Below, piece by piece: positions 5,094 through 57,884 of a stretch of 64,000 bases of DNA. The notes under the pieces were generated by a model. That model was not told the DNA's origin. It did not search any database and was given only the letters and a program-made list of their open reading frames with translations. The number at the start of each line of letters is the position of its first letter. Position 1 is the first letter of the stretch. The DNA lies in NCBI RefSeq assembly GCF_031191185.1, contig NZ_CP133465.1, positions 1,794,001-1,858,000 of the forward strand. Reading direction: 5' to 3'. Origin of the DNA: Prevotella nigrescens. Lineage in GTDB: Bacteria; Bacteroidota; Bacteroidia; Bacteroidales; Bacteroidaceae. The position numbers were made by a program, and so were the translations under genes.

Positions 5094-5175
5094 AACAGCT
5101 GTTTTGTGATGCAAAACCTACGCTATTAGAAGGCAAAAGAGCCGCTTTTGGAATGCAGAACAATAGGTCTTGCAA
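5094..5175. repeat. Phased palindrome array, about 22-base step (copy of the 23.95 kb array, inverted)
   Basis: Palindromic cores are centred at about 5098.5 (AACAGCTGTT, perfect), 5119.5 (AAAACCTACG..., right arm decayed), 5142 (AAAAGAGCCGCTTTT, near-perfect) and 5164 (AACAATAGGT, weak). Steps are 21, 22.5 and 22 bases. Bases 5133-5168 are identical, in reverse complement, to 23946-23981, and the similarity extends over about 73 bases without gaps. It lies between the dehydrogenase remnant and the nitroreductase gene. No ORF is evident in it. Confidence 0.75.
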
Positions 5176-5353
5176 TGCACTGACAACAAGTAGATTACAC
5201 GACAACTGTATTTGTGGGAAATATTTACAGTCCATCGTGTTCTTCTCTTTCAACAAATAAAGTTGCTGTGTCTGTGTTTCGGCAGTCTCGGTATTTCGGT
5301 CGGGCAACAGAAAACAGCTCTAAACGACAACCCATTAATTTGAAACTGACAGT

Positions 5354-6100
5354 ATGAATATTCAAGATTATCTTTACGAAGCGATGTTTCACAGAAAGAG
5401 CATCAGGAAGTTTAAAGACGAAATGCTCGATAACAATGTTGTACGGAGCGTAGAAGAAAGAATAAAACAACTACGCCCACTCTTTCCGGAAGAACAGATA
5501 GTCTTCCGTATACTTTCCGACGACCAGATTAAAGGGCAGGTTAAAGGCTCAACACATCATATAGCCGTCTATGCAAAACAAGGTCTGAAGTCTTATGTCA
5601 ATGCAGGGTTTATGATGCAGCAGATGGATTTATGGCTTTCGGCAAATGGTATGGGAAGTTGGTGGCATGTCAGTTCGAAACCCTCAAAGCAGTGGGGTGC
5701 TGTTGAGGGACTGCCTTTTGTGTTCCTCATAACATTTGGTATTGCGGACGAAACGTTATACAGAGAGCCTTCCGATTTTAAGCGTAAGCCCGTGTCGGAA
5801 CTCACGAACTGTGCAGAAATACATAAGTTTGTAGAACCCGTAAGGTTTGCACCATCTGCTTTCAACCAACAACCTTGGTTCTTTACCTGCTGCGATGGCA
5901 AGATACTGATGTACTGCAAGAAGGCGAACTCCCTGCTTTCTTTGTTCTTTGGCAATATGTCTCGCCTGAACGCAGGCATAGGACTCTGCCATCTTTGGCT
6001 GGCTATTGAACATGAGGGCAAGTGCTTCCATGTGGAATGTGAAGGCAATGCGCCCTATCTTGGAAAGAAAATGGAATACATTTGCAGTATCAAAGACTAA
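5354..6100 (+). CDS. Nitroreductase-fold protein, TM1586-like
   Basis: A protein of 248 residues resembling the putative nitroreductase TM1586 family (FMN-dependent NADH oxidoreductase fold in two tandem halves). Seen: the N-terminal FHRKSIRKFKDEMLDN segment with the RxSxRxF motif of nitroreductases, a central GMGSWWH stretch near residue 95, and RFAPSAFNQQPWFF near residues 165-178, the family's APSAxNxQPW substrate/flavin motif. The likely role is reduction of nitro-aromatics or quinones; the real substrate is unknown. I see no clear -7 box directly upstream; the upstream interval holds the palindrome array and plain sequence. Confidence 0.85.
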   Translation: MNIQDYLYEAMFHRKSIRKFKDEMLDNNVVRSVEERIKQLRPLFPEEQIVFRILSDDQIKGQVKGSTHHIAVYAKQGLKSYVNAGFMMQQMDLWLSANGMGSWWHVSSKPSKQWGAVEGLPFVFLITFGIADETLYREPSDFKRKPVSELTNCAEIHKFVEPVRFAPSAFNQQPWFFTCCDGKILMYCKKANSLLSLFFGNMSRLNAGIGLCHLWLAIEHEGKCFHVECEGNAPYLGKKMEYICSIKD

Positions 6101-6669
6101 CCATAAGGCAGTCTTGGCTGACTTTAATAAAAATCATCTTTCAAAACGGAGCAATTCCTTTGTAAAGCCTGACCATCTATGTTGCTGATATGTGGACGGA
6201 TGACAGGGGTGGAAATCATTCCATTCCTTCACGTGAGTTCGATGAAATAAAGACGATATGGATTCAGCAATATTCTTCTTCTGAATAAGTACTAAAATCG
6301 TAACTCCGTTACGCCAATTGTCGCAACGGGGTTACGACAGTTGTAGTAACGGAGTTACGGCAGATGTCGTTACGAAACAGATAGACACAGCTGCTCTCCA
6401 ACACCGTGAATAGCGGTATTCTGATGATTGAAGAACGATGAACTCGTGCATGGGCAATTCGCCAAACTCACGTATTTACTTCTGCATTGTAATTTCTTCG
6501 TTGTTAGAGACGTGGTAAATCATGCTCCTATCCTTTTTCCACTGCCCGTTTTGCTTGTAGATGGGACTTTATAAACACAAATACGGTACTGCCCATTGTA
6601 AGGCAATCCCGCGAATATTGCTGTGCTTTGAAAAATCGTTTGTTCTGCAATGAAGCTTGAAATAACCAC
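6101..6669. other. Convergent intergenic region, no gene
   Basis: No coding region is supported here. It contains the 23-base palindrome array at 6298-6374. At 6510-6530 there is a motif ACGTGGTAAATCATGCTCCTA that is similar to ACGTGATAAATCACACCCCTA at 24145-24165 in another 3'-flanking region. The remainder shows nothing I can interpret. Confidence 0.6.
6298..6374. repeat. Phased palindrome array, 23-base step, core GTAAC-N3-GTTAC
   Basis: Three direct units of exactly 23 bases start at 6298, 6321 and 6344, with a partial fourth at 6367. Each carries the dyad GTAAC-N3-GTTAC (TCC, then GCAAC-GGG-GTTAC, then GGA), centred at 6306, 6329 and 6352. The middle triplet varies while the arms are kept. 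The array lies between the convergent nitroreductase and DUF4301 genes. Confidence 0.85.
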
Positions 6670-8187
6670 TTACTGGTGCTGCTCGCGCAACAAGTCGTTT
6701 ACGGTCTTTACAGGATTGAAAGTAATTGCTGGCACTTCTACAAAAACGGTGTTCCAGTTGCTCATTGCTCCGTTCCAAAGACCGGGGAGTTCCAATGCCT
6801 TCAGCTCTTTTCCGTTCTTCGACTTGCTGCTGATGAAACCTGTGGCAGGGTCTACGAACTGTGGCAAATCGAACGGTTTTCCTGCATAGTCTTTCGTGGC
6901 GCAAACCAAGTCTACGGGGTTGAAGTGGGTTCCCTCCTTGAACATTCTCACCGATTCGGCGTCGTTGCTGTCTATCTGCGAACTTTCAAGTATCTGCAAA
7001 CTGACGGTGTTATCGGCATTATAGGCATAGAACGGACCGCCACCGGGTTCGCCACTGTTCCGTACCATTCCGCAAACACGCATAGGACGGTTGAACTTTT
7101 CGAGCAGGTAGGCTGCCAATTCATCGTTGTTCAGCTGGTCGATGTCCTTGCGGCGACAGTGCAAATCGTTCTCCAAGAAGTTCTTCATACACTGCAGGTC
7201 GGCTGGCGTATGGTCGGCAGCCTTAAGCTTTCTGACGTATTCGAAAGTTTTTTCCTGCAACGTTACCAATACGCCTGCTATTACCTTCTTCCACGTTACG
7301 GTTTCAGGTTTCAGTCGGTCGGGCGTTACGTTGTCGATATTCTTAATGAATATCACGTCGGCATCTATGTCGTTAAGATTCTGAATGAGCGCGCCGTGCC
7401 CACCGGGGCGGAACAAAAGCGAGCCGTCGTCGTTGCGGAAAGGCGTGTTGTCGGGGTTTGCTGCTACGGTATCGGTGCTTGGCTTCTGCTCAGAGAAAGT
7501 AATGTAGAAGCGTGTATGGTACTTTTCCTCGTACATAGGTTGCTTTTGGACAGCCTTTTCCTTGAAAAGTTCGAGATGTTCGTGCGATACCGTGAAGTGA
7601 ACGTGCGCCTCTGTACCGCACGCTGCGTATTGGGCAGCCTCAACAAGGTGTTCTTCCATTGCCGTGCGTTCGCCTTCGGCATACTTGTGGAATAGCAGTA
7701 GACCCTTCGGCAACTGCCCGTAGTTAAGTCCGTCGGTGTGCAAGAGTGTTGCTACAATGGCTTTATGGTTGCCTGCTTCCATGAGTTGCGCAATGTCTTT
7801 TCCGTGTGTAGTCCTGCACTTTTCGTTCAGTTTGTTGTAGAAAGCGAAATGTTTCAGATTGTCGAAAAAGAATTTTTCAAAGTCGGTTGTAGGCACTTCG
7901 TACGCTGCTTCAAGGAATGCGAAAAGGTTTTTGAACATTCTGCTGGCTGCCCCAGAGGCAGGAACAAACTTCACCACCTTGTGTTTTTCGGCTTTGTAGC
8001 TGTCCCAAGCTGTTGTAAATTGCTTTACTTCGTTTTCCTTTAAACGCACAACGCCATTGCCAACCGTGGCTGCGCTCTCTATTTTAAGGAAAGGAAAACC
8101 GTTTTTAAAGTCGGCAAGTTGCTTTTCAAAGTCGGAAACCGCAATGCCTTTTGAGTTCAATAATAGTTCGTCTTGCTTTGTTAACAT
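6670..8187 (-). CDS. DUF4301 family protein
   Basis: A cytoplasmic protein of 505 residues, typical of the Bacteroidota DUF4301 family. Near residues 75-90 it has FVPASGAASRMFKNL, reminiscent of the glycine/serine-rich phosphate loop of sugar nucleotidyltransferases, followed later by FRPGGHGALIQNLND (about 255-270) and RVCGMVRNSGEPGGGPFYA (about 370-388). A nucleotide-sugar or phosphotransfer role is an inference from these loops only. Its promoter region (-7 box at 8257-8264) is shared back to back with that of the divergent rel gene. Confidence 0.85.
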   Translation of the reverse strand: MLTKQDELLLNSKGIAVSDFEKQLADFKNGFPFLKIESAATVGNGVVRLKENEVKQFTTAWDSYKAEKHKVVKFVPASGAASRMFKNLFAFLEAAYEVPTTDFEKFFFDNLKHFAFYNKLNEKCRTTHGKDIAQLMEAGNHKAIVATLLHTDGLNYGQLPKGLLLFHKYAEGERTAMEEHLVEAAQYAACGTEAHVHFTVSHEHLELFKEKAVQKQPMYEEKYHTRFYITFSEQKPSTDTVAANPDNTPFRNDDGSLLFRPGGHGALIQNLNDIDADVIFIKNIDNVTPDRLKPETVTWKKVIAGVLVTLQEKTFEYVRKLKAADHTPADLQCMKNFLENDLHCRRKDIDQLNNDELAAYLLEKFNRPMRVCGMVRNSGEPGGGPFYAYNADNTVSLQILESSQIDSNDAESVRMFKEGTHFNPVDLVCATKDYAGKPFDLPQFVDPATGFISSKSKNGKELKALELPGLWNGAMSNWNTVFVEVPAITFNPVKTVNDLLREQHQ

Positions 8188-8256
8188 AACAGTATAAGTT
8201 TTTATGTACTAAGATGCAGCAACGGAACAGGGGTGCCGCAATTGTTGTCTCTTTCG

Positions 8257-8264
8257 CAAATTTA
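8257..8264 (-). promoter_or_regulatory. -7 box TAAATTTG for the DUF4301 gene
   Basis: The minus strand reads TAAATTTG, 69 bases before the ATG at 8187. It lies about 50 bases from the divergent -7 box of rel. Confidence 0.5.
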
Positions 8265-8306
8265 CTTACTTTTTCTTAATTTAGAGAACAATCAGCCGTT
8301 TTTTTG

Positions 8307-8314
8307 TACCTTTG
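8307..8314 (+). promoter_or_regulatory. -7 box TACCTTTG for the rel gene
   Basis: A consensus TAnnTTTG box lies 25 bases before the ATG at 8340. It overlaps the alternative TTG start at 8304, which therefore cannot be on the mRNA. This settles the start of the gene. Confidence 0.65.
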
Positions 8315-8339
8315 TATTGTATTATTAAAGGCATCTAAT

Positions 8340-10538
8340 ATGATTTTTACAGACGACGAGCTAAAAAGTTTTCATGCTCTTACCGAGGAATTGAACGAAG
8401 AGTTGGCAGACTACGTAACAGAACAAGACAAGGAAAAGCTGGCCTCCTACATTAAATTAATGGAAGAAAAGGGAGCTATGGGACGCAATGTCTTCGGTCT
8501 GAGCGAACTGCTTTGTGCTATGCAGACATCGCTGATAGCCGTTCGCAACATCGGACTGAAACGTGACTCAGTATTTGCTGTTGTGCTGTATACAGGTTAT
8601 GAAAGTGGCGCACTGGATATAAAGCAAATAGAAACCGATTTCGGCAAGAGTGTCGCACAGATTATTCAAGGATTGGCACGCATTCAGAACCTGTATAAGA
8701 AGAATCCTATCATCGAGAGTGAGAATTTCCGCAATCTCTTGCTTTCGTTTGCAGAAGACATGCGCGTCATACTGTTGATGATTGCCGACCGCGTGAATCT
8801 GATGCGACAAATACGCGACACCACCAACAAAGAGGCACAACGACAGGTCGCAGAGGAAGCAAGCTATCTATATGCACCGCTCGCTCACAAGTTAGGTCTC
8901 TATCAACTGAAGAGCGAACTCGAAGATTTGTCGCTGAAATACTTGGAGCACGATGCCTATTACCACATAAAAGAGAAGCTGAACGAAACGAAAAAGGCAC
9001 GCGATGCCTACATAAAGGAGTTCATAGAACCTGTCAGCAAGGAGCTTCAGAATGCAGGATTGCGCTTTCATATAAAGGGCAGAACGAAGTCGATACACTC
9101 CATCTGGCAGAAAATGAAGAAGCAGAAGTGTGCGTTTGAGGGCATATACGACCTGTTTGCCATAAGAATCATCTTGGATTCACCAGCTCAAAAGGAGAAA
9201 ATGCAATGCTGGCAAGCCTACTCTATCGTAACAGATATGTATCAACCCAATCCGAAACGCCTGCGCGATTGGATATCCGTGCCCAAATCGAACGGCTACG
9301 AGTGTCTGCACATTACGGTTTTGGGACCTAATAGCAAATGGGTGGAGGTGCAAATACGCACCGAACGTATGGACGAAGTTGCCGAACACGGCTTGGCAGC
9401 GCACTGGCGATACAAGGGAATACAGGCAGAAGAAGGAATGGACACGTGGTTGGCGTCTATCAGAACGGCATTGGAGGCAGGCGACAACTTAGAAGTGATG
9501 ACGCAGTTCAAGCGCGACCTGTACGACAAAGAGATTTACGTGTTCACGCCGAAAGGCGATTTGCTGAAGTTTCCTAAAGGTGCTACCTTGTTAGACTTTG
9601 CCTATCACATTCATTCAAAGATTGGAAACCAATGCGTTGGTGGAAAGATAAATGGCAAGAATGCCTCTATAAGAACCGAACTGCACAGTGGCGACACCGT
9701 GGAAGTAACGACGTCAGCCACGCAAAAGCCGAAACAAGAATGGCTGAACATAGCAAAATCAGCTCGTGCGAAGTCGAAAATACGCCTTGCACTGAAGGAA
9801 ACGCAGGTGAAAGAGGGCGTGTATGCAAAGGAAATGCTCGAAAGAAGGTTCAAGAACAAGAAGATTGAAATAGAGGAACAAACGCTTTTCCACCTTATAA
9901 AGCATCTTGGATTCAAGGAAATTACGGAGTTCTACAAGCAGATAGCCGACGAAAAGCTCGATGTAAACAACGTGATAGAAACGTATCAACAGCTCTACAA
10001 TCAGACACACAACCAGAATACGCAGAAGGAAACTGAAAGTGCGGAGAAGTTCGAGCTTGCCAATGAAACGGCAGAACTGCTGAAGAGCAACGAAGACGTG
10101 CTCGTAATAGACCAGAATTTAAAGGGCATCGACTTCTCGCTGTCGAAGTGTTGCAACCCTATTTATGGCGACCCCATCTTCGGATTCGTTACCGTGAACG
10201 GCGGAATAAAGATACACCGAGAGGACTGTCCCAACGCTCCCGAACTGCGCAAACGCTTCGGCTACCGTGTAGTGAAAGCCAAATGGAGCGGCAAAGGCGG
10301 GGCAAATTACAGCATAACGCTGCGCATTATAGGGCACGATGATATTGGAATAGTGAACAACATTACCAATGTGCTGTCGAAAGAAGAGAAGGTTGTGATG
10401 CGTTCCATCAACATTGACTCGCACGACGGCCTGTTTTCGGGAAACCTCGTTGTGCTGATTGAAGACACATCGAAGCTGAACGCGCTCATAAAGAAGCTGA
10501 AAAATATAAAGGGAGTAAAACAAATTATAAGGTTATAA
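8340..10538 (+). CDS. RelA/SpoT-family (p)ppGpp synthetase with degenerate hydrolase domain
   Basis: A protein of 732 residues with the long RSH order: N-terminal hydrolase-like region (about 1-170), synthetase (about 220-370), TGS (about 385-450), then a cysteine/histidine segment (SKCCNPIYGDPIFGF, about 605-620) and a C-terminal ACT domain (about 660-732). The synthetase keeps GRTKSIHSIWQKM, IYDLFAIRIILD, RLRDWISVPKSNGYECLH and VEVQIRT. In the hydrolase region the HDxxED metal site is missing: where LLHDVVEDT is expected the protein reads VVLYTGYESG. It should therefore make, but not degrade, the alarmone in the stringent response. The start at 8340 follows from the promoter position. Confidence 0.9.
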   Translation: MIFTDDELKSFHALTEELNEELADYVTEQDKEKLASYIKLMEEKGAMGRNVFGLSELLCAMQTSLIAVRNIGLKRDSVFAVVLYTGYESGALDIKQIETDFGKSVAQIIQGLARIQNLYKKNPIIESENFRNLLLSFAEDMRVILLMIADRVNLMRQIRDTTNKEAQRQVAEEASYLYAPLAHKLGLYQLKSELEDLSLKYLEHDAYYHIKEKLNETKKARDAYIKEFIEPVSKELQNAGLRFHIKGRTKSIHSIWQKMKKQKCAFEGIYDLFAIRIILDSPAQKEKMQCWQAYSIVTDMYQPNPKRLRDWISVPKSNGYECLHITVLGPNSKWVEVQIRTERMDEVAEHGLAAHWRYKGIQAEEGMDTWLASIRTALEAGDNLEVMTQFKRDLYDKEIYVFTPKGDLLKFPKGATLLDFAYHIHSKIGNQCVGGKINGKNASIRTELHSGDTVEVTTSATQKPKQEWLNIAKSARAKSKIRLALKETQVKEGVYAKEMLERRFKNKKIEIEEQTLFHLIKHLGFKEITEFYKQIADEKLDVNNVIETYQQLYNQTHNQNTQKETESAEKFELANETAELLKSNEDVLVIDQNLKGIDFSLSKCCNPIYGDPIFGFVTVNGGIKIHREDCPNAPELRKRFGYRVVKAKWSGKGGANYSITLRIIGHDDIGIVNNITNVLSKEEKVVMRSINIDSHDGLFSGNLVVLIEDTSKLNALIKKLKNIKGVKQIIRL

Positions 10539-11124
10539 GCTGCAAATTCTTTCTCTCAGTTGCTTTAATTATTGGATAGGAAACGGTGTCCTCAATATGA
10601 GACAATGGGAATGCTGGTCTGGTCATGAATTCTCTGATGGCTCATAAACATGATTTATTTATTAAAGCGAATGCCACAAGCAATGTAATGGCTTTCGTTC
10701 CCGTCGTTGGCACAGTCATGGTTTTGAGTTTTCTCTTCGTGTTCCACGCAGTCGCAGTAGTAATTTCTATTCTGTTCTTTTAGGCTTGATCCGTAGTGAA
10801 AGCAAAGAACGTGTAAGATTATTTAATCTTCTTTACACCAAAGTCTTACCCAGGGCAGATAGGTGAAATATCTGGAGCTATCTATGGGCGCAATTATAGT
10901 AAACAGCAGGTGTCTTACTTGAACAATAGTTGCCGTGAAGACGTTGGACAATAGCTCGTTATTCAGCATTATATCGATGGAAGCCACTTTTGTAGCCAGA
11001 TAGGAAAAGAAATCAGACAAGTCTGCACTTTCCCTTAGTATGTGCAGGCAACAATGGCAGACGAATGCTATCAGGGAACTTTCGCTGTGAAAGAAGAAGT
11101 AAATATGCGGGGTAGTTCGGTTCG
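10539..11124. other. Convergent intergenic region with a decayed coding fragment
   Basis: No intact gene. Bases 10655-10820 carry a minus-strand coding remnant, described separately. A short perfect inverted repeat, AAGATTA-TT-TAATCTT at 10815-10830, may form a small terminator-like stem for the minus-strand operon. The interval 10835-11124 is open in one minus-strand frame but has no recognisable protein character. Confidence 0.45.
10655..10820 (-). pseudogene. Possible C-terminal remnant of an outer-membrane protein
   Basis: On the minus strand a frame runs about 55 codons from an upstream in-frame stop to TAA at 10655-10657, with no start codon. It encodes HYGSSLKEQNRNYYCDCVEH and ends in NESHYIACGIRFNK. 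The alternating aromatic/hydrophobic end is typical of the last strand of an outer-membrane beta barrel. The rest of the gene is absent. Short length makes this tentative. Confidence 0.3.
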
Positions 11125-16076: not shown

Positions 16077-16244
16077 CAAAAGAAAACTGAATAAAGCACG
16101 AAAACATATTTATTTTTATAAGCTGGTTCTAAAAACCACCTTGCCGGATTTTGCATTTTCAATAGTACCCCTCGTGTTTATTGATGGCTGCGAAGGCAGT
16201 GAAAATAGTTTACATATTCAAGACGAATATAATCTTTTTTCAGG

Positions 16245-16390
16245 AACGAATATACTTATTTTTCAGAAGATATATATCTTCCAGGAAAAAGGTATATACT
16301 TTTCAGGCAAAAACATTATACTTTTCATACAAAAAGTATATACTTTCTTGGTAAAAAGTATATACTTTTTTCTGAAAGAAATAATGTTCT
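16245..16390. repeat. Phased palindrome array, 22-base step, core GTATATAC
   Basis: Symmetry centres fall at 16251.5 (GAATATAC), 16273.5 (AAGATATATATCTT, perfect 14-mer), 16295.5 (GTATATAC), 16317.5 (CATTATAC, degenerate), 16339.5 (AAGTATATACTT) and 16361.5 (AAAGTATATACTTT). Every step is exactly 22 bases. A decayed unit with AGAA...TTCT arms is centred at 16383.5, still in phase. The sequences between cores do not match one another well, so spacing and symmetry are kept rather than full sequence. Confidence 0.85.
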
Positions 16391-16490
16391 TGTATATATC
16401 TGATATTCAATTAATTATACTTTCTCCCACAATCAGGGAAAACGCATTATAATTTCTTCCTGTTCATAATCTCTTTCCTTTTATAATTGC

Positions 16491-16498
16491 TACCTTTG
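16491..16498 (+). promoter_or_regulatory. -7 box TACCTTTG upstream of a small ORF
   Basis: A consensus box ending six bases before the ATG at 16505, so any transcript would be nearly leaderless. Confidence 0.5.
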
Positions 16499-16504
16499 TA
16501 TGCT

Positions 16505-16735
16505 ATGAGTATAGCAGAACAAAAACACAGCAGAGAGCAGTTAGTCATCATTTCCGGTGAGATAGCCCGCCACGACACCCGTATGGAGCGTTGCAGGATA
16601 CATGATGCACAGACCATCTTTCAGGGAAATGATGGAAAAGGTAAGCAAAAAGAAAGACTTATAATGTGTTTTCCCTGTACTGAGGTTTATAATAAAGGTA
16701 CGATGGTTTCGAAAAGAAAGAATATCAGCATTTAA
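16505..16735 (+). CDS. Small ORF of unknown function, possibly a gene remnant
   Basis: Encodes 76 residues starting MSIAEQKHSREQLVIISGEI. I do not recognise it. The first 45 residues are charged and protein-like (SREQLVIISGEIARHDTRME); the last 30 are basic and of poor character, as expected of either a small protein or the first part of a gene that has lost its remainder. A perfect -7 box directly upstream is the main support. It sits between two phased palindrome arrays. Confidence 0.35.
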   Translation: MSIAEQKHSREQLVIISGEIARHDTRMERCRIHDAQTIFQGNDGKGKQKERLIMCFPCTEVYNKGTMVSKRKNISI

Positions 16736-16810: not shown

Positions 16811-16892
16811 ATGCAAAGTGCATTCCCTCACTTTAGCACCATTGCTAAAAGAACTTAGCACCGATGCCGGACAATCCGGGCAACGGTGCTAA
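16811..16892. repeat. Phased palindrome array, 22-base step, core GCA-N4-TGC
   Basis: Units: ATGCA-AAG-TGCAT (centre 16817), TTTAGCA-CCAT-TGCTAAA (16840.5), GCA-CCGA-TGC (16862.5) and GCA-ACGG-TGC (16884.5). The last three are exactly 22 bases apart. TTAGCACC occurs at 16833 and 16855, and GGTGCTAA at 16885, so the last two units can also fold together as one long hairpin (TTAGCACCG with CGGTGCTAA, plus CCGGA with TCCGG inside). It lies between the small ORF and the convergent DUF4738 gene. Confidence 0.75.
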
Positions 16893-23629: not shown

Positions 23630-23652
23630 AATGTGTATAGTCCTTTCATTCG

Positions 23653-23660
23653 CAAAGATA
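23653..23660 (-). promoter_or_regulatory. -7 box TATCTTTG for the xseA operon
   Basis: The minus strand reads TATCTTTG, 23 bases before the xseA ATG. Confidence 0.55.
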
Positions 23661-24246
23661 AGAATAAAATTAGAATAAAACTACAATGGTATTAAAAATC
23701 TTTTATTTTTCCAACACGGTCTTCAGTCCATGATGACGGAAAGCGATAAAAACATTCTCGTTTTACTGTAGCAACCCCGCACGCTTAACACAGCCTATTT
23801 ACACAGCAACCACAAAAGGGCTTCCAAGTAACGGAAACTAAATGGGAACTATCTATTTTATGAACGAAAAGAGAGAAATATGCCTGTAAATATTTTTTAC
23901 AAACGTAACTGTTACGTAATCATCTCATCGTCAGCGCATTCCAAAACCTATTGTTCTGCATTCCAAAAGCGGCTCTTTTGCATGGTAAAAACGTAGGTTT
24001 TACAGCGCAAAAGAGCCGCTTTCGCAATGTCAAAACGTAGTTGTCACTTTTTAACAATGTTATCTTTACAAAATTGTAGCGTAAATATAGGGGGACGATT
24101 CTTTGCCTTCATCATATTTAGGCTGCTTCTTCTTTTGTTTGGGAACGTGATAAATCACACCCCTACCTGCCATTCTGCATTATATTTTTCCTTAATAAAC
24201 AGCAACTACCCCATAGTTTGTATTCATAGAAACCAAGCCAATGGCA
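23661..24246. other. Intergenic region, no gene
   Basis: About 590 bases between the xseA promoter and the 3' end of the sulfatase-fold gene. It contains a perfect 15-base palindrome ACGTAACTGTTACGT at 23903-23917, the phased palindrome array at 23945-24043, and the motif ACGTGATAAATCACACCCCTA at 24145-24165 that has a relative at 6510. No coding region is supported. Confidence 0.6.
23945..24043. repeat. Phased palindrome array, 22-base step, AAAAGCGGCTCTTTT class
   Basis: Symmetry centres at 23950 (AACCTATTGTT), 23972 (AAAAGCGGCTCTTTT), 23994.5 (AAAACGTAGGTTTT), 24016 (AAAAGAGCCGCTTT, with outer GCG...CGC) and 24038 (AACGTAGTT). Steps are 22, 22.5, 21.5 and 22 bases. Bases 23946-23981 are the exact reverse complement of 5133-5168. 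Relative to the 5.1 kb copy three units align; the neighbouring unit there has a different but still palindromic core. Confidence 0.8.
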
Positions 24247-50368: not shown

Positions 50369-50375
50369 CAGCACT

Positions 50376-51208: not shown

Positions 51209-51280
51209 AACACCCTCACGAGGGTATCATGCAATACCCTCACGAGGGTGTCAGGCAATACCCTCATGAGGGTATTATAT
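51209..51280. repeat. Phased palindrome array, 24-base step, core ACCCTCAYGAGGGT
   Basis: Three direct units of exactly 24 bases start at 51209, 51233 and 51257. Each carries a 14-base dyad: ACCCTCACGAGGGT twice and ACCCTCATGAGGGT (perfectly symmetric) once, centred at 51218.5, 51242.5 and 51266.5. The ten linker bases differ by several positions between units. The array lies between convergent truA and ccsA, followed by a separate 16-base palindrome TATATAGTACTATATA (51310-51325) and a terminator. Confidence 0.88.
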
Positions 51281-51330
51281 GACGTCGTATAATAGAGTTG
51301 ATAGGCATCTATATAGTACTATATATACAG

Positions 51331-51364
51331 AGAGGACACACCACAATCGGCGTGTCCTCTTTTA
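51331..51364 (+). terminator. Terminator between truA and ccsA
   Basis: A nine-base stem AGAGGACAC/GTGTCCTCT with a 12-base loop is followed by TTTT. A-rich sequence is lacking on the other side, so it mainly serves the plus strand. Confidence 0.75.
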
Positions 51365-51404
51365 TGCGTCTTACAGTTTATGTCGTCTAAATATTGCTGT
51401 TAGC

Positions 51405-52202
51405 CTATTGCATATTGTAAGTATGTACACTTGTGCCTTGCGCAGAAGGCAGATAGTTAATGCCCCACCAACACATTTGCAGGAGCACAAAGTTCACGAT
51501 GAGTATCCACATAGCCACCTCCAAATCGCACTTCTTGCGCAAGCGGTAGTGAATATAGGTAAGATAAGCCAGCCAGGTGGCAGCTGCCCAGGTCTCTTTC
51601 GGGTCCCAAGCCCAGTAGTGCCCCCAGGCATCTTTTGCCCAGAGCGCACCCGTAAGCATGCCCAGCGACAGGAATGCCCAGCCAATGTAGACAAGGTTGT
51701 CCGTAATGTCAAGTTCTTTATGCGTAACTATCTTGCTCTTCTTAAAGAACAACAGATAGACAGCCATGACAAAAGCTGCTCCTAAAAGCGCGTAGGCAAA
51801 CATGTAAATGATGACGTGCGGAGCAAACCAGGGGCTCTGCAGTGCGGGCATAAGTGTCTTGCTGTGAATTTCGGGCTTCAGCAGATTAATCCCAATGAAG
51901 ACCAATGCCAAAATGGTAGAGAACGACAGCAGCCATTTATAGTCCCATCGGCTGTAAACAATGATACCGGCTAATGGCAAGAAGAAAGAATACCACAGAC
52001 GTGTCTCGCCCATGGTACGCATTGGGGGACGGTCGAGCGAAATCCACATGATGAGTATATAGCTAAAGAAAACAACCAGTCCGGCTATCGTGGCACTATA
52101 TGCCACAGCCTTCCTGTCTTTCCAAGCCGCGCAGGCACCCGCTGCCCAGAGCAGCACCGCTACCATGGCAAAGTATATAAAGTAATTCCAAAATGCAGTC
52201 AT
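51405..52202 (-). CDS. Cytochrome c maturation protein CcsA-like
   Basis: An inner-membrane haem-handling protein of 265 residues with about seven to eight membrane helices. The haem-binding WWD-type motif is clear: DAWGHYWAWDPKETWAAATW near residues 200-220, with a conserved His earlier (PHVIIYMFAYALL). It works with ResB/Ccs1 in the system II pathway that carries haem to apocytochromes. The gene overlaps the resB-like gene by four bases (ATGA) and lies downstream of nrfHA, whose nine haem sites require this machinery. Confidence 0.92.
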   Translation of the reverse strand: MTAFWNYFIYFAMVAVLLWAAGACAAWKDRKAVAYSATIAGLVVFFSYILIMWISLDRPPMRTMGETRLWYSFFLPLAGIIVYSRWDYKWLLSFSTILALVFIGINLLKPEIHSKTLMPALQSPWFAPHVIIYMFAYALLGAAFVMAVYLLFFKKSKIVTHKELDITDNLVYIGWAFLSLGMLTGALWAKDAWGHYWAWDPKETWAAATWLAYLTYIHYRLRKKCDLEVAMWILIVNFVLLQMCWWGINYLPSAQGTSVHTYNMQ

Positions 52203-53506
52203 TTCTTTCCTTCCTCCTTCTTGTATTTATTACGCCCTGCAGTTACAAACATGAGAACTGCGCCAATAATCAGCAAGTAGATCCCCACATAGGTGGCAGG
52301 CAGCCAAGGATCCGACACAAGTTCGTACACACTGAGCGTGCTCCATTTGCCCTGCTCCTTGTTAAAGTCGAGCTGGTAAATCTTCCACGTGCCTACGGTA
52401 ACAGGCTTGTTTACCTCTATGCGTGCCTTGAAGGTCTGGCCATCTTTGGTATAGATATTAACGTCGGAAGCGTAACGCAATGGTTCGCGAGCCGACATGG
52501 CTATCTCTGTCCTCTTGTCGAGCTTCAGCGTAGACATAGGGAACATGTAACTTCCCGAGCTCACCCAGCCTTCCTTCACCACGTTCCCTTTCTGCGCCCT
52601 GACAAGGATAGCCGTAGCAGCACCCTTATCCTTGTATTCAACGAAACCACCTGCATTAATGCGCATGCCAAGATCGTCCATTCTCATCATCTTCATCATC
52701 TGCGCCGGCATGCCCTTGATCATTTTAAGCATACCCGCAGGCAGTGCGTCTTCAATGTACTTCACGACCGTAATGTTCCAACCCATCAGTTCGCCCGAGG
52801 TGAACCCCCTCTCGACAATAATGTTCTCTGGCTTGTCGGCAGGCAGGCTCTTGCCCGACTTGGTGTCGAATATAGCCAGCTTGGGAGGATACTCGTCGAT
52901 ACTGAACTTCTGCAGTTCGATGGCAATCGGCAGTTCGTGCACCTGCTGGAAGTTGTCAATGCCACGCCATTCAGGCTTGCCTTCTTCGCAATACATCTTC
53001 AGACGTTGCATGTCGGCAGAGCCTAATGTTCCACAAGTAATGAAGATAAACAGTCCGATATGACTGACGAGCGAAGGAATGAACCGCTTCTGAAAGTGCA
53101 TAAGCTGGTGTATTCCTACTTCTGCCACGATTACAACGCTCCAGAGATAGATGAGAACGAACGGCCAGAAACTAAGCATGCGGCTGAGCCCGACAGGATC
53201 CATAGCCGGGTGTCCATCGGCAACCTGTCTGCTTAGTCCCATAATAACGGTAAGTACAGATGCAGTGGCAAGCGCAGGCACGGCAGCCTCAACCTGCGTC
53301 ATGAAGCGAAACAGATATACTTTAGAGCGCAGTGCATAAAACAGCCCTGACACTATGACAAGTGCAGTTAGGCCAATGATGTTGGCTGGCCACATGAACA
53401 CGAGCCACTCCATTGCTCCTATAGAGACTTGTAATAGGGCTCCTGTTATCAGAAGCCCTATACTTATTGCAAATCCCTCACGATATTTCCAAGGTTTATT
53501 CCACAT
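52199..53506 (-). CDS. ResB-like cytochrome c biogenesis protein
   Basis: A protein of 435 residues with membrane helices near residues 12-32, 35-58, 72-92 and 125-145, then a large periplasmic domain, and a last helix near 405-425. This is the layout of ResB/Ccs1, the partner of CcsA in system II cytochrome c maturation. Motifs: IGLLITGALLQVSIGAMEW and GRNKYKKEEGKK at the end. It is located between nrfA and ccsA in one minus-strand cluster, the standard nrfHA-resBC arrangement of Bacteroidota. Confidence 0.9.
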   Translation of the reverse strand: MWNKPWKYREGFAISIGLLITGALLQVSIGAMEWLVFMWPANIIGLTALVIVSGLFYALRSKVYLFRFMTQVEAAVPALATASVLTVIMGLSRQVADGHPAMDPVGLSRMLSFWPFVLIYLWSVVIVAEVGIHQLMHFQKRFIPSLVSHIGLFIFITCGTLGSADMQRLKMYCEEGKPEWRGIDNFQQVHELPIAIELQKFSIDEYPPKLAIFDTKSGKSLPADKPENIIVERGFTSGELMGWNITVVKYIEDALPAGMLKMIKGMPAQMMKMMRMDDLGMRINAGGFVEYKDKGAATAILVRAQKGNVVKEGWVSSGSYMFPMSTLKLDKRTEIAMSAREPLRYASDVNIYTKDGQTFKARIEVNKPVTVGTWKIYQLDFNKEQGKWSTLSVYELVSDPWLPATYVGIYLLIIGAVLMFVTAGRNKYKKEEGKK

Positions 53507-53548
53507 AATTTATGTCCTGTAAACAATTCTTGTTGCCAGTTATTGTCA

Positions 53549-55045
53549 TTACATTGGTTTGGTAATGAAGCGTCCATGCTTCTTTGCTGCCTGAATCCAT
53601 TTAGGAACCACGGTGTTGATGAAGTCTTTCTTCTGAGCTTTAAGTTTCTTCATGTCGAGACCAATGTAAGACTGTGCCTTTTCCTTTGTAGAAATGTCTG
53701 GCATTGGAACAGGCTTGCTGTAACCATGGCGTGCAAGAATACGAGCTATTTCAACACGTGCAGTCTGTGCGTAGTCGAGAGACATGGCGAGCAGACGAGT
53801 AACCTCTTGTGGTGCATGGAAGCTGGCTCCATGACTTGCTACAGCGTAATCCCAGCGCCATTGGCTCTTGCGCAATGCCTTTAATACTGGCTCCATCTCT
53901 TTGGCAGTAGCGCCCTTGTCCCAAGCGAACTTGGCTTCGATATGTGCACGAGACAGTTCTTTCTCCACACGGTTGCGAACCTGAAGCACTTTCTCCTGAC
54001 GCTCATATACATTCTGCCTTAGTGTCTCTTCACTCTGACGGTGGCAAGTCTGACATGTGCGGCTGATGTTTGCCAATGGAGAAGTAATATGGTGGTCTGT
54101 ATATTTCACGCCACCTTCTTGAACGTAAGGCATGTGACAGTCAGCACAACTCAGACCACGCTGACCGTGAATACCTTGCTTGAAGAGCTCGTATCCAGGG
54201 TGCTGTGCCTTTAAGATCTTTGTTTTAGAAAGTGGGTGTATGTAGTCGTAGAAGCCGATAGAGTCGTAATATTCTTCAGCTGCTTCGCAGGTCAGTCCCT
54301 TATCTTGTGGAAACTTAAGATACTGACCGTTGTCCTTTTCAAAGTAATACTCGGTATGGCACTGTGCACAAACCAACGAACGCATTTCTTGATGACTGGC
54401 TTTGTTTACATCTTTGCCGGCACGTTGCCATGCCTCATAGAGAGCAGGACGAGCTGGTTTCAGTTCCATCGTACGTGCATCATGACAGTCTGAACAGCCA
54501 ACGGTGTTCATCATCTCATTTCCCCACTTGCTCCACTTTGCAGCATAGAAAGCATTCTTACCCTTCTCGCGCATCAGGCGGGGAACGTCAGGACCTTTAC
54601 AAGTCCAACAGGTACCAGGCTGCATGTCGTCTTGCCCATCTACACCAGGCGAACCTGTACGCAAGATTTTGCGTAAGTCTTCAATAGCATGGCGATGCCC
54701 GCGAGGAGTATTGTAATCACGAGAGAATGCATAACCAGCCCACAAGATTACCATTTCCGGGCGTTGTTCCAAGACATCAGCCTCTTGTGAAGAATTATAT
54801 TTACTTACGAAAGAAGTGTCTTCCGTCATCGCCCAGGTTTGGTATTCCCTCGGGAAATCTTCAGCAAACTTCTCATTCTGACTTACAATAGAATCGGTCA
54901 TCACTACTCGGCGGTTATTAAACACTGAGGCAACTTCTGCGCGACGCTCCAACATAGAAGAACAGAGCATACCGAGAACGAAGATGATAAACATTGCTCC
55001 GCCGAAGAGCAACCATCCTTGCCATTTCTTTAATTGTTTAGCCAT
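53549..55045 (-). CDS. nrfA: Pentahaem nitrite reductase NrfA (cytochrome c-552)
   Basis: Reduces nitrite to ammonia with six electrons in the periplasm. A protein of 498 residues with an N-terminal membrane-anchor/signal segment (about 10-30). Five haem sites are visible in order: CWTCK near residue 147 (the catalytic haem with Lys ligand, diagnostic for NrfA), CSDCH, CAQCH, CADCH and CQTCH. The catalytic loop includes HGQRGLSCADCHMPYV and KYTDHHITSPL. It lies 11 bases downstream of nrfH. The active-site layout supports full function, letting the organism respire nitrite or detoxify it and nitric oxide. Confidence 0.97.
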   Translation of the reverse strand: MAKQLKKWQGWLLFGGAMFIIFVLGMLCSSMLERRAEVASVFNNRRVVMTDSIVSQNEKFAEDFPREYQTWAMTEDTSFVSKYNSSQEADVLEQRPEMVILWAGYAFSRDYNTPRGHRHAIEDLRKILRTGSPGVDGQDDMQPGTCWTCKGPDVPRLMREKGKNAFYAAKWSKWGNEMMNTVGCSDCHDARTMELKPARPALYEAWQRAGKDVNKASHQEMRSLVCAQCHTEYYFEKDNGQYLKFPQDKGLTCEAAEEYYDSIGFYDYIHPLSKTKILKAQHPGYELFKQGIHGQRGLSCADCHMPYVQEGGVKYTDHHITSPLANISRTCQTCHRQSEETLRQNVYERQEKVLQVRNRVEKELSRAHIEAKFAWDKGATAKEMEPVLKALRKSQWRWDYAVASHGASFHAPQEVTRLLAMSLDYAQTARVEIARILARHGYSKPVPMPDISTKEKAQSYIGLDMKKLKAQKKDFINTVVPKWIQAAKKHGRFITKPM

Positions 55046-55056
55046 ATTGTTTTATT

Positions 55057-55662
55057 TTATTTCTTTTCAAGTAAATTTTGTAACCACTGTGGCACTGGAG
55101 AAGAAGGAATAGGGGTCTGAGTTTCTGCATTCGGAGTGCTGCTCAATGTATTCATTCCCCCATGGGGAACTTCACGATGGCAGTCCCAGCATGCTTTTCC
55201 TGCACCACGTTGTGCTTCCATATAGTCTATTCTTCCAGTGCGCACTACTCTTGTATTGAGCTCTTTGTGGCAGCGAATACAATTATCCATTATAACTTCT
55301 GCCGATGCCTCTTCAGCCATTATAGCCTGTCGTTCCGATTTCGTAACAAAATAAGCCACGTGCTTCATACCGTCCATACCTTTAAATAGATATTTAGCAG
55401 CAAGGCTTGAATGTGGTACATGGCAATCGTTACACGTTGCATCTCGTCCATGACTGGAATGCGCCCATGTGGCGTAGTAAGGAGTCATAATGTGACAGTT
55501 TACACAAGCTGCGGGATCATCGCCTATAAGATAAGTCTGCATTCGCAGAAGATAGAAAAACAATCCTCCTAATCCCACAATCACACCCGACAAGATGAGC
55601 GATACCACTTTCTGTCGGTAACTTAACTCGGGAAACCATGATGTAAGCTTTCGCAAATTCAT
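55057..55662 (-). CDS. nrfH: Tetrahaem quinol dehydrogenase NrfH
   Basis: The membrane partner of NrfA, which takes electrons from menaquinol. A protein of 201 residues: a single N-terminal membrane helix (about 18-42) is followed by four haem sites, CVNCH, CNDCH, CIRCH and CWDCH, as in the NapC/NirT/NrfH family. The C-terminal tail (about 180-201) is Pro/Thr-rich. The first gene of the nrfHA-resB-ccsA cluster, with a -7 box at 55708-55715. Confidence 0.95.
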   Translation of the reverse strand: MNLRKLTSWFPELSYRQKVVSLILSGVIVGLGGLFFYLLRMQTYLIGDDPAACVNCHIMTPYYATWAHSSHGRDATCNDCHVPHSSLAAKYLFKGMDGMKHVAYFVTKSERQAIMAEEASAEVIMDNCIRCHKELNTRVVRTGRIDYMEAQRGAGKACWDCHREVPHGGMNTLSSTPNAETQTPIPSSPVPQWLQNLLEKK

Positions 55663-55707
55663 CGTAATTATGTTTATTCTATTATTCTAAATAAAAGTCT
55701 TTTCGTG

Positions 55708-55715
55708 CAAAGATA
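55708..55715 (-). promoter_or_regulatory. -7 box TATCTTTG for nrfHA
   Basis: The minus strand reads TATCTTTG, 45 bases before the nrfH ATG. Confidence 0.55.
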
Positions 55716-55815
55716 GTTAAAATAGTACAACTCATCAACAGTTTATCCCTATTTATTAGGATTAAATTATTTAAAAAACGTTTAATCAATTAATATATCA
55801 TAAAATAACAAATTG

Positions 55816-55831
55816 GGTAACAAATGTTACC
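55816..55831. promoter_or_regulatory. Candidate FNR/CRP-family operator GGTAAC-AAAT-GTTACC
   Basis: A perfect dyad with six-base arms and a four-base centre, the geometry of FNR-type sites. It is centred at 55823.5 between the divergent nrfH and PepSY genes. Relative to the -7 box at 55853-55860, the centre falls about 43 bases upstream of the expected transcription start, the usual place for a class II activator. A CRP/FNR-family regulator such as HcpR, known to control nitrosative-stress genes in Bacteroidota, is an attractive but unproven candidate. Confidence 0.55.
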
Positions 55832-55852
55832 ACTTGAGTAAAGCAACATTCG

Positions 55853-55860
55853 TATTTTTG
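55853..55860 (+). promoter_or_regulatory. -7 box TATTTTTG for the PepSY gene
   Basis: Lies 31 bases before the ATG at 55892 and about 22 bases downstream of the dyad at 55816-55831. Confidence 0.55.
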
Positions 55861-55891
55861 CTGATTAAGTTCAAAGCAAGTATAAGACTAA

Positions 55892-57373
55892 ATGAAAAAA
55901 ATGCATCGTTGGTTCGGACTAATACTTTGTCTGTTCCTCATAGGTTTTTGTGTCTCGGGTATTATTTTAAATCACCACGAGTTATTCTCGAGTATAAATG
56001 TCTCTCGCTCGCTTATGCCCAACACTTATGAATATAAGAACTGGAATCAAGGTCTGATGCGAGGTACGATTGCGAAAGGAGACAGTGTTATTATATATGG
56101 TGAAAATGGTTTCTTTCTTACCGACAGCCTTGGGTCGAACATACGAGACTTTAATAAAGGAATGCCCTCTGGAGTTGAGATGCGCAATATACGGAATGTA
56201 ACGCGTACTCGTTCGGGTGATATATGGGCTGTGGGAAACTTCCAGCTGTTTCATCTGGAGAATAGTAATGTGTGGGAGACTGTCGAACTGGACGGTCTTG
56301 ATACACGATTAACTGATGTTACTTCTCGTGGTGATTCTGTAGTGGTGGCATCTCGTAATCATCTTTGGTTATCTCCCAATACGGACAAACCTTTTAGGCA
56401 AATACAGCTTCGGGCAGGTACCGACTATGATGGGAAAGTGTCGCTTTTGCGTACAATATGGCTGATACATAGTGGTGCGCTCTTTGGTACTATCGGCAAG
56501 ATAATAGGCGATGCAGTTGCCATTGTTTTGATAATTCTTAGCATTTCTGGTGTCTGGTTTTTTATTGCCCGTAAATCTCGTGCAAGCAGAACACAGCTAA
56601 AAACGTTATATTGGATACATCGACGCATAGGCAGAATAACCATTGTGCTCACCTTGTTTGTAACAATAACAGGCTGGTTTCTGCGTCCGCCTGCAATGAT
56701 TGCTATTGTTAAAGGTCGTGTACCTGCGCTGCCTCTTTCAGTGCAAAGTTGCGATAATCCGTGGAACGACCAACTGCGTGCTGTCCGCTACGATTTCGCC
56801 AAGAAAGATTGGCTCATCTATACTTCTAATGGCTTCTATGTCCTACAGGATCTCTTCTCAACTCCACGACCAGTGAATGGTACACCAAAGGTTAGCTTTA
56901 TGGGCTTGTCATCATTCTATCAGGTAAAAACAGGTCAGTGGCTCATCGGGTCGTTCAACGGTCTATATTTATGGAATCGTGATGCTCAAGAAGGTGCACC
57001 AAGAGTCCTACCAATCGACAAGGACATAACGATGGCAGGATTCAGCAACGATTTCAAAGGCCCCATTCTCATTGATTATTACAAGGGAACAACCTATCCC
57101 AAGATGCCTGCCCAATTTAAAGATCTCCCGATGTCGCTTCATATGGCTGCGCTCGAAACCCATACAGGGCGTATCTACACTTTCATAAAAGACGGCAGTA
57201 ATGTCTTTTATATTGCAATTATTGGTCTGGCGATTGCATGGTGTCTCTGGACGGGCTACTACAGACCACGTAAGAATCGTAACAAGAAAAACAAAGACAC
57301 AAAGAAGCCTAAGAAGAGACGTCAGCATCTTAGGTTAGAAGAGGATAATGAAATAAATGAAACAAATGAATGA
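55892..57373 (+). CDS. PepSY-associated membrane protein
   Basis: A protein of 493 residues. The start KKMHRWFGLILCLFLIGFCV resembles the first helix of PepSY_TM proteins, which often carry a conserved HRW motif. Further helices lie near residues 205-228, 245-270 and 435-455, with a large extracytoplasmic part between the first two helices (about 35-195) and another (about 280-430) that both contain repeated beta-propeller-like turns (LFHLENSNVWETV, NGLYLWNRD). The C-terminus is very basic. PepSY_TM proteins are linked to iron/haem reduction or transport; divergence from nrfHA makes a redox role plausible. It overlaps the DUF488 gene. Confidence 0.8.
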   Translation: MKKMHRWFGLILCLFLIGFCVSGIILNHHELFSSINVSRSLMPNTYEYKNWNQGLMRGTIAKGDSVIIYGENGFFLTDSLGSNIRDFNKGMPSGVEMRNIRNVTRTRSGDIWAVGNFQLFHLENSNVWETVELDGLDTRLTDVTSRGDSVVVASRNHLWLSPNTDKPFRQIQLRAGTDYDGKVSLLRTIWLIHSGALFGTIGKIIGDAVAIVLIILSISGVWFFIARKSRASRTQLKTLYWIHRRIGRITIVLTLFVTITGWFLRPPAMIAIVKGRVPALPLSVQSCDNPWNDQLRAVRYDFAKKDWLIYTSNGFYVLQDLFSTPRPVNGTPKVSFMGLSSFYQVKTGQWLIGSFNGLYLWNRDAQEGAPRVLPIDKDITMAGFSNDFKGPILIDYYKGTTYPKMPAQFKDLPMSLHMAALETHTGRIYTFIKDGSNVFYIAIIGLAIAWCLWTGYYRPRKNRNKKNKDTKKPKKRRQHLRLEEDNEINETNE

Positions 57374-57725
57374 ATTAAGAATTAAGCGTATTTATCTTTC
57401 ACCAGAGGAAGATGATGGTTATCGGCTCCTCATCGACCGTTTGTGGCCACGAGGAATTTCAAAAGTAAAGGCGAGTCTCGATGAGTGGGACAAGACTGTA
57501 GCACCTTCAACAGAGCTTCGTGAATGGTTCGGACACAAGGAAGAGAACTTTCCCGAATTCGAGAGAAAGTATCGTATAGAATTAGACAACAACCCAGATG
57601 CAGCAAATTTTGCACAACATGTTAAAAAGCTTCTTAAAACAGGCAACGTAACATTGCTGTATGGAGCCAAGGACGAAACTTGCAATCAGGCTGTTGTTCT
57701 TAAGACTTGGGTATTAAGTAAGTAA
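57357..57725 (+). CDS. DUF488 family protein
   Basis: A small soluble protein of 122 residues. The family signature is present: IKRIYLSPEEDDGYRLLIDR then LWPRGISK near residues 30-37, WDKTVAPSTELREWFGHKE near 45-63, and VTLLYGAKDETCNQAVVLK near 99-117. DUF488 proteins are widespread and uncharacterised. It overlaps the PepSY gene by 17 bases; ATG 57366 is an alternative start that would cut the overlap to 8. Likely cotranscribed with the PepSY gene and under the same control. Confidence 0.92.
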   Translation: MKQMNELRIKRIYLSPEEDDGYRLLIDRLWPRGISKVKASLDEWDKTVAPSTELREWFGHKEENFPEFERKYRIELDNNPDAANFAQHVKKLLKTGNVTLLYGAKDETCNQAVVLKTWVLSK

Positions 57726-57806
57726 GACAGAAAGAATTAAATATAAAACCAAGTCTGTAGGATATAAGTATTAAGACGTAACGAAGTGTCTTCACCACAT
57801 AAAAGA

Positions 57807-57884
57807 TTAGATATCTCAAACCCACAAATTAGATATCTAACACGCTCGTTTCAGATATCTGTCACGCACGAATTAGATATCTGT
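57807..57884. repeat. Phased palindrome array, 22-base step, core AGATATCT
   Basis: Four perfect AGATATCT octamers start at 57809, 57831, 57853 and 57875, exactly 22 bases apart. Unit 2 extends to the 12-base palindrome TTAGATATCTAA; the others are shorter. Linkers differ (for example CAAACCCACAAATT and GTCACGCACGAATT). The same core and step occur at 38970-38999. Confidence 0.9.

What the first reader, a model, noticed from the sequence alone, without database searches (positions are those of the whole stretch)
5094..57884. A family of intergenic arrays of short palindromes at a fixed 22-24 base step
Seen directly: at eight intergenic loci (5.1, 6.3, 16.3, 16.85, 23.97, 38.97, 51.2 and 57.8 kb) short dyads recur with symmetry centres 22, 23 or 24 bases apart. 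The dyad sequence differs between loci and, at some loci, between units, but the step and the symmetry are kept. 22 bases is close to two helical turns, so all dyads at a locus face the same side of the DNA. That fits either cooperative sites for a dimeric protein or a minisatellite/MITE type of element. Porphyromonas gingivalis has BrickBuilt MITEs with 22- and 23-base tandem repeats; whether these are relatives is unknown. None overlaps a gene, and at least five of eight lie between convergent genes.
Basis: partly seen in the sequence, partly recalled or inferred. Interest (0 to 1): 0.85.

Follow-up and report, generated by a model that had tools for sequence, protein, structure and literature searches.

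The report
Intergenic elements with 22-base palindrome arrays
Short stretches between genes in oral Prevotella bacteria carry rows of small repeated units, often palindromes, spaced mostly exactly 22 bases apart in many families with unrelated sequences, which suggests that the spacing itself matters.

Summary
The arrays are real, but the eight loci are not one thing. They fall into at least five dispersed families, F1-F5. The 6.3 kb array lies in a MITE whose ends match insertion sequences of this genome, with an empty site in P. pallens. 5.1 kb is a truncated F2 copy; 16.85 kb is a hairpin with one relative in the sequence held.

The larger result is the period. Of 203 intergenic tandem arrays sampled in six Prevotella genomes, 121 have period 22, in 16 sequence-unrelated unit families; no other period has more than 4. 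In P. pallens, 31 F1 arrays keep 102 of 102 steps at 22; dyads vary at 0.007 per site, spacers at 0.30; no step changed where flank rates predict 15-29 indels.

Best reading: mobile-element families maintained as phased sites for palindrome-reading protein(s). No protein was identified. Against: one orthologous F1 pair shows little extra dyad constraint; F2 core covariation and slot re-use failed their tests; 3 of 8 window loci are convergent, not five.

The parts
5073..5184 (-). truncated copy of the F2 element (the '5.1 kb' locus)
   Evidence: match C2:1799073-1799184 minus, 83%; aligned as L065, consensus positions 1-150 of 189
6231..6473 (+). F3 element (MITE) with inverted ends 6231-6246 and 6458-6473 and a 23-base array at 6298-6373
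   Evidence: inverted ends, TRF period 23, aligned copies, IS elements with the same ends, empty site of another copy in P. pallens
16180..16433 (+). F5 element; array of AAAAGTATATACTTTT-like units at about 16217-16385, step 22-23
   Evidence: TRF, genome matches, aligned copies with shared TAGTTTACA left end
16833..16892 (+). hairpin with repeated TTAGCACC (the '16.85 kb' locus); not an array family in the sequence held
   Evidence: one relative, P. pallens L293:3083-3159, 88%; dyad steps 11 and 21.5
23885..24075 (+). F2 element, about 190 bases, four units AAAA-N7-TTTT at 22 bases
   Evidence: copies in the genome, sharp ends, 40 copies aligned, same element at the orthologous place in P. 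pallens L293
38970..38999 (+). F1 array without leader or tail, two AGATATCT dyads
   Evidence: C2:1832970-1832999; step 22
51209..51280 (+). F4 array, three ACCCTCAYGAGGGT dyads at 24 bases
   Evidence: other genome places
57806..57883 (+). F1 array without leader or tail, four AGATATCT dyads at 22 bases
   Evidence: F1 array in the orthologous intergenic region of P. pallens, F2 element in that of P. falsenii

Best explanation
These are several families of short intergenic elements of oral Prevotella, spread as MITE-like units, whose middle is a row of repeated, often palindromic units at a fixed step: 22 bases in most families, 23 or 24 in a few. In F1 the palindrome and the step are kept while the spacer drifts, so the array is more than a passive minisatellite. 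I propose that each dyad is a site for a dimeric, sequence-specific DNA-binding protein and that neighbouring dimers must sit in register; 22 bases is two turns at 11 bases per turn. Different families would carry different specificities. Shown: families, dispersal, shared period, conservation of dyad and step in P. pallens F1. Inferred: the protein, its cooperativity, and the register.
For: Five families dispersed in the own genome. F3 is a MITE with an IS partner and an empty site. 121 of 203 intergenic arrays have period 22, in 16 unit families. 31 P. pallens F1 arrays: 102 of 102 steps at 22 with 17-27 allowed; dyad 0.007, spacer 0.303 changes per site; flank indel rates predict about 15-29 indels in 1,428 spacer sites, no step change seen. 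Tail-only anchoring in 1.2 Mb: 96 of 96 near-perfect dyads at 22, 0.012 against 0.336. Other families: F7 20 of 21 and F10 37 of 38 steps at 22, own F1 27 of 27. The symmetric dyad AGACGTCT occurs 9 times in 250 dyads where independent changes predict about 1.3; copies are related, so this is not a probability.
Against: No binding protein found or sought experimentally. In the clearest orthologous F1 pair (L042, L257) dyads differ at 3 of 32 sites and spacers at 6 of 42 (counted on the alignment). F10 shows hardly any contrast (0.076 against 0.09; nearly all dyad changes at the two central bases). With two mismatches accepted, 13 of 196 F1 steps are not 22. Part of the 31 arrays were fetched because they hold an exact 22-step pair, and dyads with more than one mismatch ended a chain. 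Most 22-24 base units have no significant palindrome: 29 of 131 at p 0.05 or 37 of 131 by another measure. F3 and F4 are not 22.
Confidence: 0.45

Rival explanations
1. BrickBuilt-like passive minisatellite: mobile elements that happen to carry a tandem repeat. Arrays change by slippage, have no function, and dyads only help hairpins form during replication.
For: Leader-array-tail anatomy and varying unit number; IS partner of F3; lineage-specific amplification, F1 274 pairs in P. pallens and 15 in the own genome; adjacent units slightly more alike than others, 8.8 against 8.0 of 14.
Against: No step change where flank indel rates predict 15-29; dyads far less variable than spacers; 16 unrelated families share period 22; all pairs of units within an array are hardly more alike than units of different arrays, 8.2 against 8.0 of 14.
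Confidence: 0.28
2. Single-strand hairpins act: transcribed arrays fold and serve as bidirectional terminators or RNA stabilisers, or ssDNA hairpins are read by a nuclease or transposase.
For: Strong predicted RNA folds on both strands (z -2.8 or lower) at 7 of 8 window loci; 14 of 37 classifiable own-genome loci between convergent ORFs against 38 of 160 baseline regions.
Against: Any inverted repeat folds this way; the 5.1 kb locus does not fold better than shuffles on + (z -0.05). A loop of 13 or 15 bases would do as well as 14, so a fixed step is not explained. F2 core covariation not significant, 427 of 5000 permutations reach the observed value. No Rfam match in the window. The convergent excess is weak.
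Confidence: 0.14
3. A DNA-handling machine with a 22-base ruler (transposase, polymerase or reverse transcriptase) creates the tandem units, so the period reflects how they are made and not a use.
For: One period, many unrelated units, most of them without a significant palindrome.
Against: No candidate machine; Y1 transposase (PF01797) absent in 4 of 4 genomes searched. Does not explain why F1 dyads stay while spacers drift. F3 is 23 and F4 24.
Confidence: 0.13

Closest known systems
BrickBuilt MITE of Porphyromonas gingivalis (PMC4596501)
   Same: Intergenic, dispersed, leader - tandem array of 23 bases - tail, unit number varies; predicted stem loops; IS-like ends
   Different: Several families at once with unrelated units, mostly 22 bases; F3 ends are ACGTNAGTTCGA, not the BrickBuilt ends GAGACCTTTGCA; conservation of dyad and step measured here
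MITE239 of P. gingivalis (ends as printed in PMC4596501, Table 2)
   Same: First 13 bases of the left end identical to F3 at window 6231-6243; length about the same (name 239; F3 here 243 bases)
   Different: The paper does not report a tandem array inside MITE239 (sections 5, 7 part 1, 8, 9, 10 read); interior not compared
REP/BIME palindromes with RAYT transposases (PMC3733652 seen as a search listing; otherwise recalled)
   Same: Many intergenic palindromic copies in one genome
   Different: No Y1 transposase in 4 of 4 genomes; tandem arrays at a fixed 22-base step
Phased operator or nucleoid-protein site arrays (recalled)
   Same: Palindromic sites about two helical turns apart would allow cooperative, same-face binding
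   Different: No protein known here; more than a dozen different units; carried by mobile elements

Membership tests
MITE (F3) | terminal inverted repeats shared with an autonomous element in the same genome | tested here: met
   Ends AYGTNAGTTCGAYRAA on F3 copies and on elements of 1,025, 1,093 and 1,425 bases; the ORF of the 1,425-base one matches PF13612; the longest ORFs of the shorter ones printed are about 150 aa
MITE (F3) | target duplication and empty site | tested here: met
   One copy (L070) is missing at the orthologous place in P. pallens L249, with an apparent duplication of about 5-7 A/T-rich bases read by eye; the window's own copy shows no clear duplication
MITE (F1, F2, F4, F5) | terminal inverted repeats shared with an autonomous element | tested here: inconclusive
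   F2 has short similar ends TGTAAA/TTTACA and F5 TAGTTTA, read by eye; F1 ends not resolved; no partner IS searched for these
BrickBuilt | leader - 23-base tandem - tail architecture | tested here: met
   F3 23-base array inside conserved flanks; F1 leader and tail with a 22-base array
BrickBuilt | BrickBuilt terminal repeats GAGACCTTTGCA | tested here: not met
   F3 ends are ACGTNAGTTCGA; the BrickBuilt ends are printed in PMC4596501
BrickBuilt | BrickBuilt repeat sequence | not tested
   The 23-base sequence was not fetched; the paper reports no nucleotide match outside P. gingivalis and P. gulae
REP/RAYT | Y1 transposase (PF01797) in the genome | tested here: not met
   0 of 4 genomes (own, P. 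pallens, G017, P. falsenii); control genomes ring in 5 of 14
Phased operator array | conserved dyads at a fixed step with drifting spacers | tested here: met
   P. pallens F1; against it, the ortholog pair and F10
Phased operator array | a protein that binds the dyads cooperatively | not testable with these tools
   needs pull-down or footprinting
Known structured RNA | match to an Rfam family | tested here: not met
   0 matches at gathering score in the window

The most novel reading that the evidence does not exclude
Prevotella has a 22-base rule that does not depend on sequence: at least 16 unrelated unit families in intergenic DNA share the period because a widespread DNA-binding or nucleoid-organising system needs sites every 22 bases, and mobile elements are the vehicles that supply and renew these arrays.
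Probability: 0.3. Interest if true: 0.88.

Novelty: new variant of a known kind. Interest (0 to 1): 0.7.

Why it matters
A minisatellite inside a MITE has been described in P. gingivalis (PMC4596501). Here the same architecture appears in several families at once, with one shared period across unrelated unit sequences, and in P. pallens the dyads are conserved while spacers drift. If the period is functional, it is a physical rule (register every 22 bases) that moving one dyad by five bases can test, and the arrays are ready-made bait for an unknown DNA-binding protein of oral Bacteroidales. If instead it reflects how the arrays are made, it points to an unknown machine with a 22-base ruler.

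Tried and rejected
REP/RAYT origin: no Y1 transposase in 4 of 4 genomes. Known structured RNA: no Rfam match in the window. Covariation of the 7-base F2 cores: striking single cases (L112, L117, L099, L105), but permuting unit 4 among the 40 copies reaches the observed value 427 of 5000 times, and 527 of 5000 with the 34 distinct triples, so it is not claimed. Re-use of one intergenic slot by different families: seen at window 51.2 kb (F4; P. pallens L250 has a TTTACRYGTAAA array), L083 (F4; P. pallens L248 has F1), 57.8 kb (F1; P. falsenii has F2) and L055 (F2; P. pallens L173, chosen for F1, has F1), but the systematic test of 41 orthologous intergenic pairs (of 188 own regions) gives 1 both, 2 own only, 3 P. 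pallens only, 35 neither, Fisher p 0.27. Convergent-gene bias: of 43 own-genome family loci 14 convergent, 19 co-directional, 4 divergent, 6 in an ORF; P. pallens F1 5, 7 and 2 of 14; baseline regions 38, 86 and 36: weak. Curved DNA from phased A-tracts: fits F2, F5 and the AGCTTATAAGCT family by eye, not the GC-richer F3 and F4; no curvature was computed. Outgroups: E. coli 100 kb has no intergenic array at score 45; 20 kb of each of two other Bacteroidales genomes has none at 22, too little to conclude.
Full report
WHAT WAS GIVEN. Eight intergenic loci in a 64 kb window were said to carry short dyads at a 22-24 base step. The window is C2:1794001-1858000 of a 2.68 Mb genome with contigs of 2,105,254 and 567,798 bases. 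The relatives found for the protein encoded at 55,892-57,370, just before the 57.8 kb array, are Prevotella pallens (90%), P. falsenii and P. aurantiaca (81% each). The two contig sizes recall P. intermedia (from memory; not tested).

THE OBSERVATION. A dyad scan, the repeat tools and reading of the sequence confirm regular units at 57.8, 38.97, 51.2, 23.97 and 16.3 kb, and a 23-base tandem with weaker dyads at 6.3 kb. 16.85 kb is a hairpin with a repeated TTAGCACC; in the sequence held it has one relative, in P. pallens. 5.1 kb is a truncated, inverted copy of the element at 23.97 kb. Three of the eight lie between convergent ORFs, four between co-directional and one between divergent ones, not five convergent.

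CHANCE. In 264 intergenic regions of the own genome, strict dyads (four or more pairs, no loop) occur 22 bases apart 22 times against 2 in dinucleotide shuffles; five regions have three or more at that step against 0.0. Six stretches had been picked for hits; without them it is 9 against 3 pairs and two regions against 0.1 (shuffle maximum 2), both in the window. The independent tests matter more. In 400 kb of P. pallens taken at even intervals, 12 of 165 regions have three or more such dyads at step 22, none at other steps from 12 to 47 except 4 at the harmonic 44, shuffles 0.0; with looser dyads it is 5 at step 22 and one or two at 15, 17, 19, 20, 37 and 44. Ten F1 arrays in that sample all lie outside ORFs of 100 aa or more.

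FAMILIES. F1 (AGATATCT; 57.8 and 38.97 kb): 15 exact pairs in the own genome with a reversed-pattern control of 0, 274 in P. pallens with a control of 4, none in P. falsenii, P. aurantiaca or G017, and 2 of 393 sampled genomes of the order, counting the own one. F2 (23.97 and 5.1 kb): 59 matches, 40 copies aligned, about 190 bases with sharp ends, four units AAAA-N7-TTTT; in relatives 4 of 60 genomes counting the own one, strong in G017 and weak in two others. F3 (6.3 kb): 42 matches. F4 (51.2 kb): 5 matches. F5 (16.3 kb): 15 matches. Match counts include both strands and overlapping pieces, and for F2, F3 and F5 only 40 first-look candidates were scored, so they are neither copy numbers nor complete.

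MOBILE ANATOMY. F3 copies share ends ACGTNAGTTCGA and a central 23-base array of varying length. A pattern search finds the same ends on elements of 1,025, 1,093 and 1,425 bases; the reading frame of the 1,425-base one matches PF13612, and the frames of three shorter ones printed are about 150 aa and alike. One F3 copy (L070) is absent from the orthologous place in P. pallens, with an apparent duplication of about 5-7 A/T-rich bases. The first 13 bases equal the left end of MITE239 of P. gingivalis as printed in PMC4596501 (abstract and sections 5, 7 part 1, 8, 9 and 10 read). F1 in P. pallens has a leader of about 110 and a tail of about 150 bases around the array; the arrays at 57.8 and 38.97 kb lack them, by eye. 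F2 at 23.97 kb is present at the orthologous place in P. pallens.

THE PERIOD. Tandem Repeats Finder at score 45 or more finds 203 intergenic arrays of period 10-60 in the samples of six genomes (own, P. pallens, G016, G024, G017 and, separately, E. coli with none); 121 have period 22: own unbiased set 20 of 39, of which 3 in the window; own chosen set 7 of 10; P. pallens 77 of 118; G017, chosen for F2, 10 of 16; G016 5 of 14; G024 2 of 6. So five Prevotella genomes contribute the 203. Inside ORFs period 22 is rarer: 2 of 41 in P. pallens, but 4 of 14 in the own unbiased set, where it is the commonest; whether those ORFs are genes was not checked. Shuffled own intergenic DNA gives none at 22 in three runs. 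Grouping units by best-rotation identity of at least 66% (single linkage) gives 16 families at 22 and at most 4 at any other period. Examples: AGATATCT, TTTACTTACGTGTAAGTAAAAC, AGCTTATAAGCT, AAAAGCTCGCGAGCTTTTTCAA and ACGGGTGTAGGACCCGTGGGGC in P. pallens, ATATGATGTCATAT in the own genome, AAACGTTT in G024. A contiguous palindrome is significant (p 0.05) in 29 of 131 units of period 22-24 and 4 of 72 others; by total pairing, 37 of 131 and 8 of 72. So the period is more general than the palindrome.

CONSTRAINT. In P. pallens, 31 F1 arrays found through the start of the tail give 102 steps, all 22 although 17 to 27 was allowed. Dyads (at most one mismatch accepted) differ from consensus at 0.007 per site, spacers at 0.303, leader at 0.279 and tail at 0.272. 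Leader and tail carry 0.020 and 0.011 indels per site, so 1,428 spacer sites should hold about 29 or 15; no step changed. Some of these arrays had been fetched because they hold an exact 22-step pair. Anchoring on the tail alone in 1.2 Mb of even samples gives 33 hits; 96 of 96 dyads with at most one mismatch are at 22, dyad rate 0.012 against 0.336 in spacers; dyads with two or three mismatches are at 22 in 27 of 46 cases; 3 hits gave no unit and one ran into another repeat. Accepting two mismatches, F1 steps are 22 in 183 of 196 cases and the rates 0.058 against 0.314; F7 20 of 21 steps, 0.027 against 0.215; F10 37 of 38 steps, 0.076 against 0.09; own F1 27 of 27 steps, 0.054 against 0.323. 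The symmetric change AGACGTCT occurs 9 times in 250 dyads where independent changes predict about 1.3; copies are related, so this is indicative only. Units within an array are hardly more alike than units of different arrays (8.2 against 8.0 of 14; neighbours 8.8).

RESULTS AGAINST. In the clearest orthologous F1 pair (L042, L257) dyads differ at 3 of 32 and spacers at 6 of 42 sites. F10 shows hardly any contrast. F2 core covariation and slot re-use fail their tests. RNA folds are strong on both strands at 7 of 8 loci, as for any inverted repeat. Six of 43 own family loci have their centre in an ORF of 100 aa or more. No binding protein was found.

PRINT. Searches on Prevotella with palindromic intergenic repeats, tandem repeats, MITEs, REP and minisatellites, on Bacteroid- palindromes (12 of 29 papers listed) and on tandem period list no paper whose title or abstract start describes such arrays in Prevotella; the library holds open-licence papers only. 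PMC5771137 and PMC3940949 were seen as passages, PMC3733652 as a listing with the start of its abstract.

VERDICT. Real, and broader than reported. As elements they are a new variant of a known kind (MITE with an internal array). The shared 22-base period across unrelated families, and its conservation in P. pallens F1, is the part that is hard to explain and directly testable.

Noticed in passing
window 16434-16677: A 244-base stretch with 42-base, 74% complementary inverted ends (CAGGGAAAACGCATTATAA...), next to the F5 array; looks like another MITE-type element.
   Followed up: no
window 23641-24225 and L293: The intergenic region with F2 at 23.97 kb looks nearly identical in P. pallens (by eye about 97%), while neighbouring-gene matches elsewhere run at 74-86%; within the array four adjacent bases differ together (ATGG against AACA-type). 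Recent exchange between species is possible.
   Followed up: partly
F2 copies L064, L067, L068, L097, L099, L105, L108, L112: The 7-base cores of F2 units appear in swapped order or inverted between constant arms, as if single units flip or exchange.
   Followed up: partly
L013, L014 and P. pallens samples: A second, smaller group of AT-rich intergenic tandem repeats has period 21 (2 in the own unbiased set, 11 in P. pallens).
   Followed up: no
window 58006-58054: A near-perfect 23-base inverted repeat (TTAATGCAAAACAAGACCATCTT) between convergent genes, 120 bases after the F1 array; probably an intrinsic terminator.
   Followed up: no
L019:6243-6388: A long 22-base array (6.6 copies, unit TACTGTTGCCAATGAATTGTCA) unrelated to the other families.
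   Followed up: no
L166 and L250 (P. pallens): F1 arrays that end with a different palindrome, TGACGTCA inside AAATATGACGTCATATTT, placed at the same 22-base step.
   Followed up: partly
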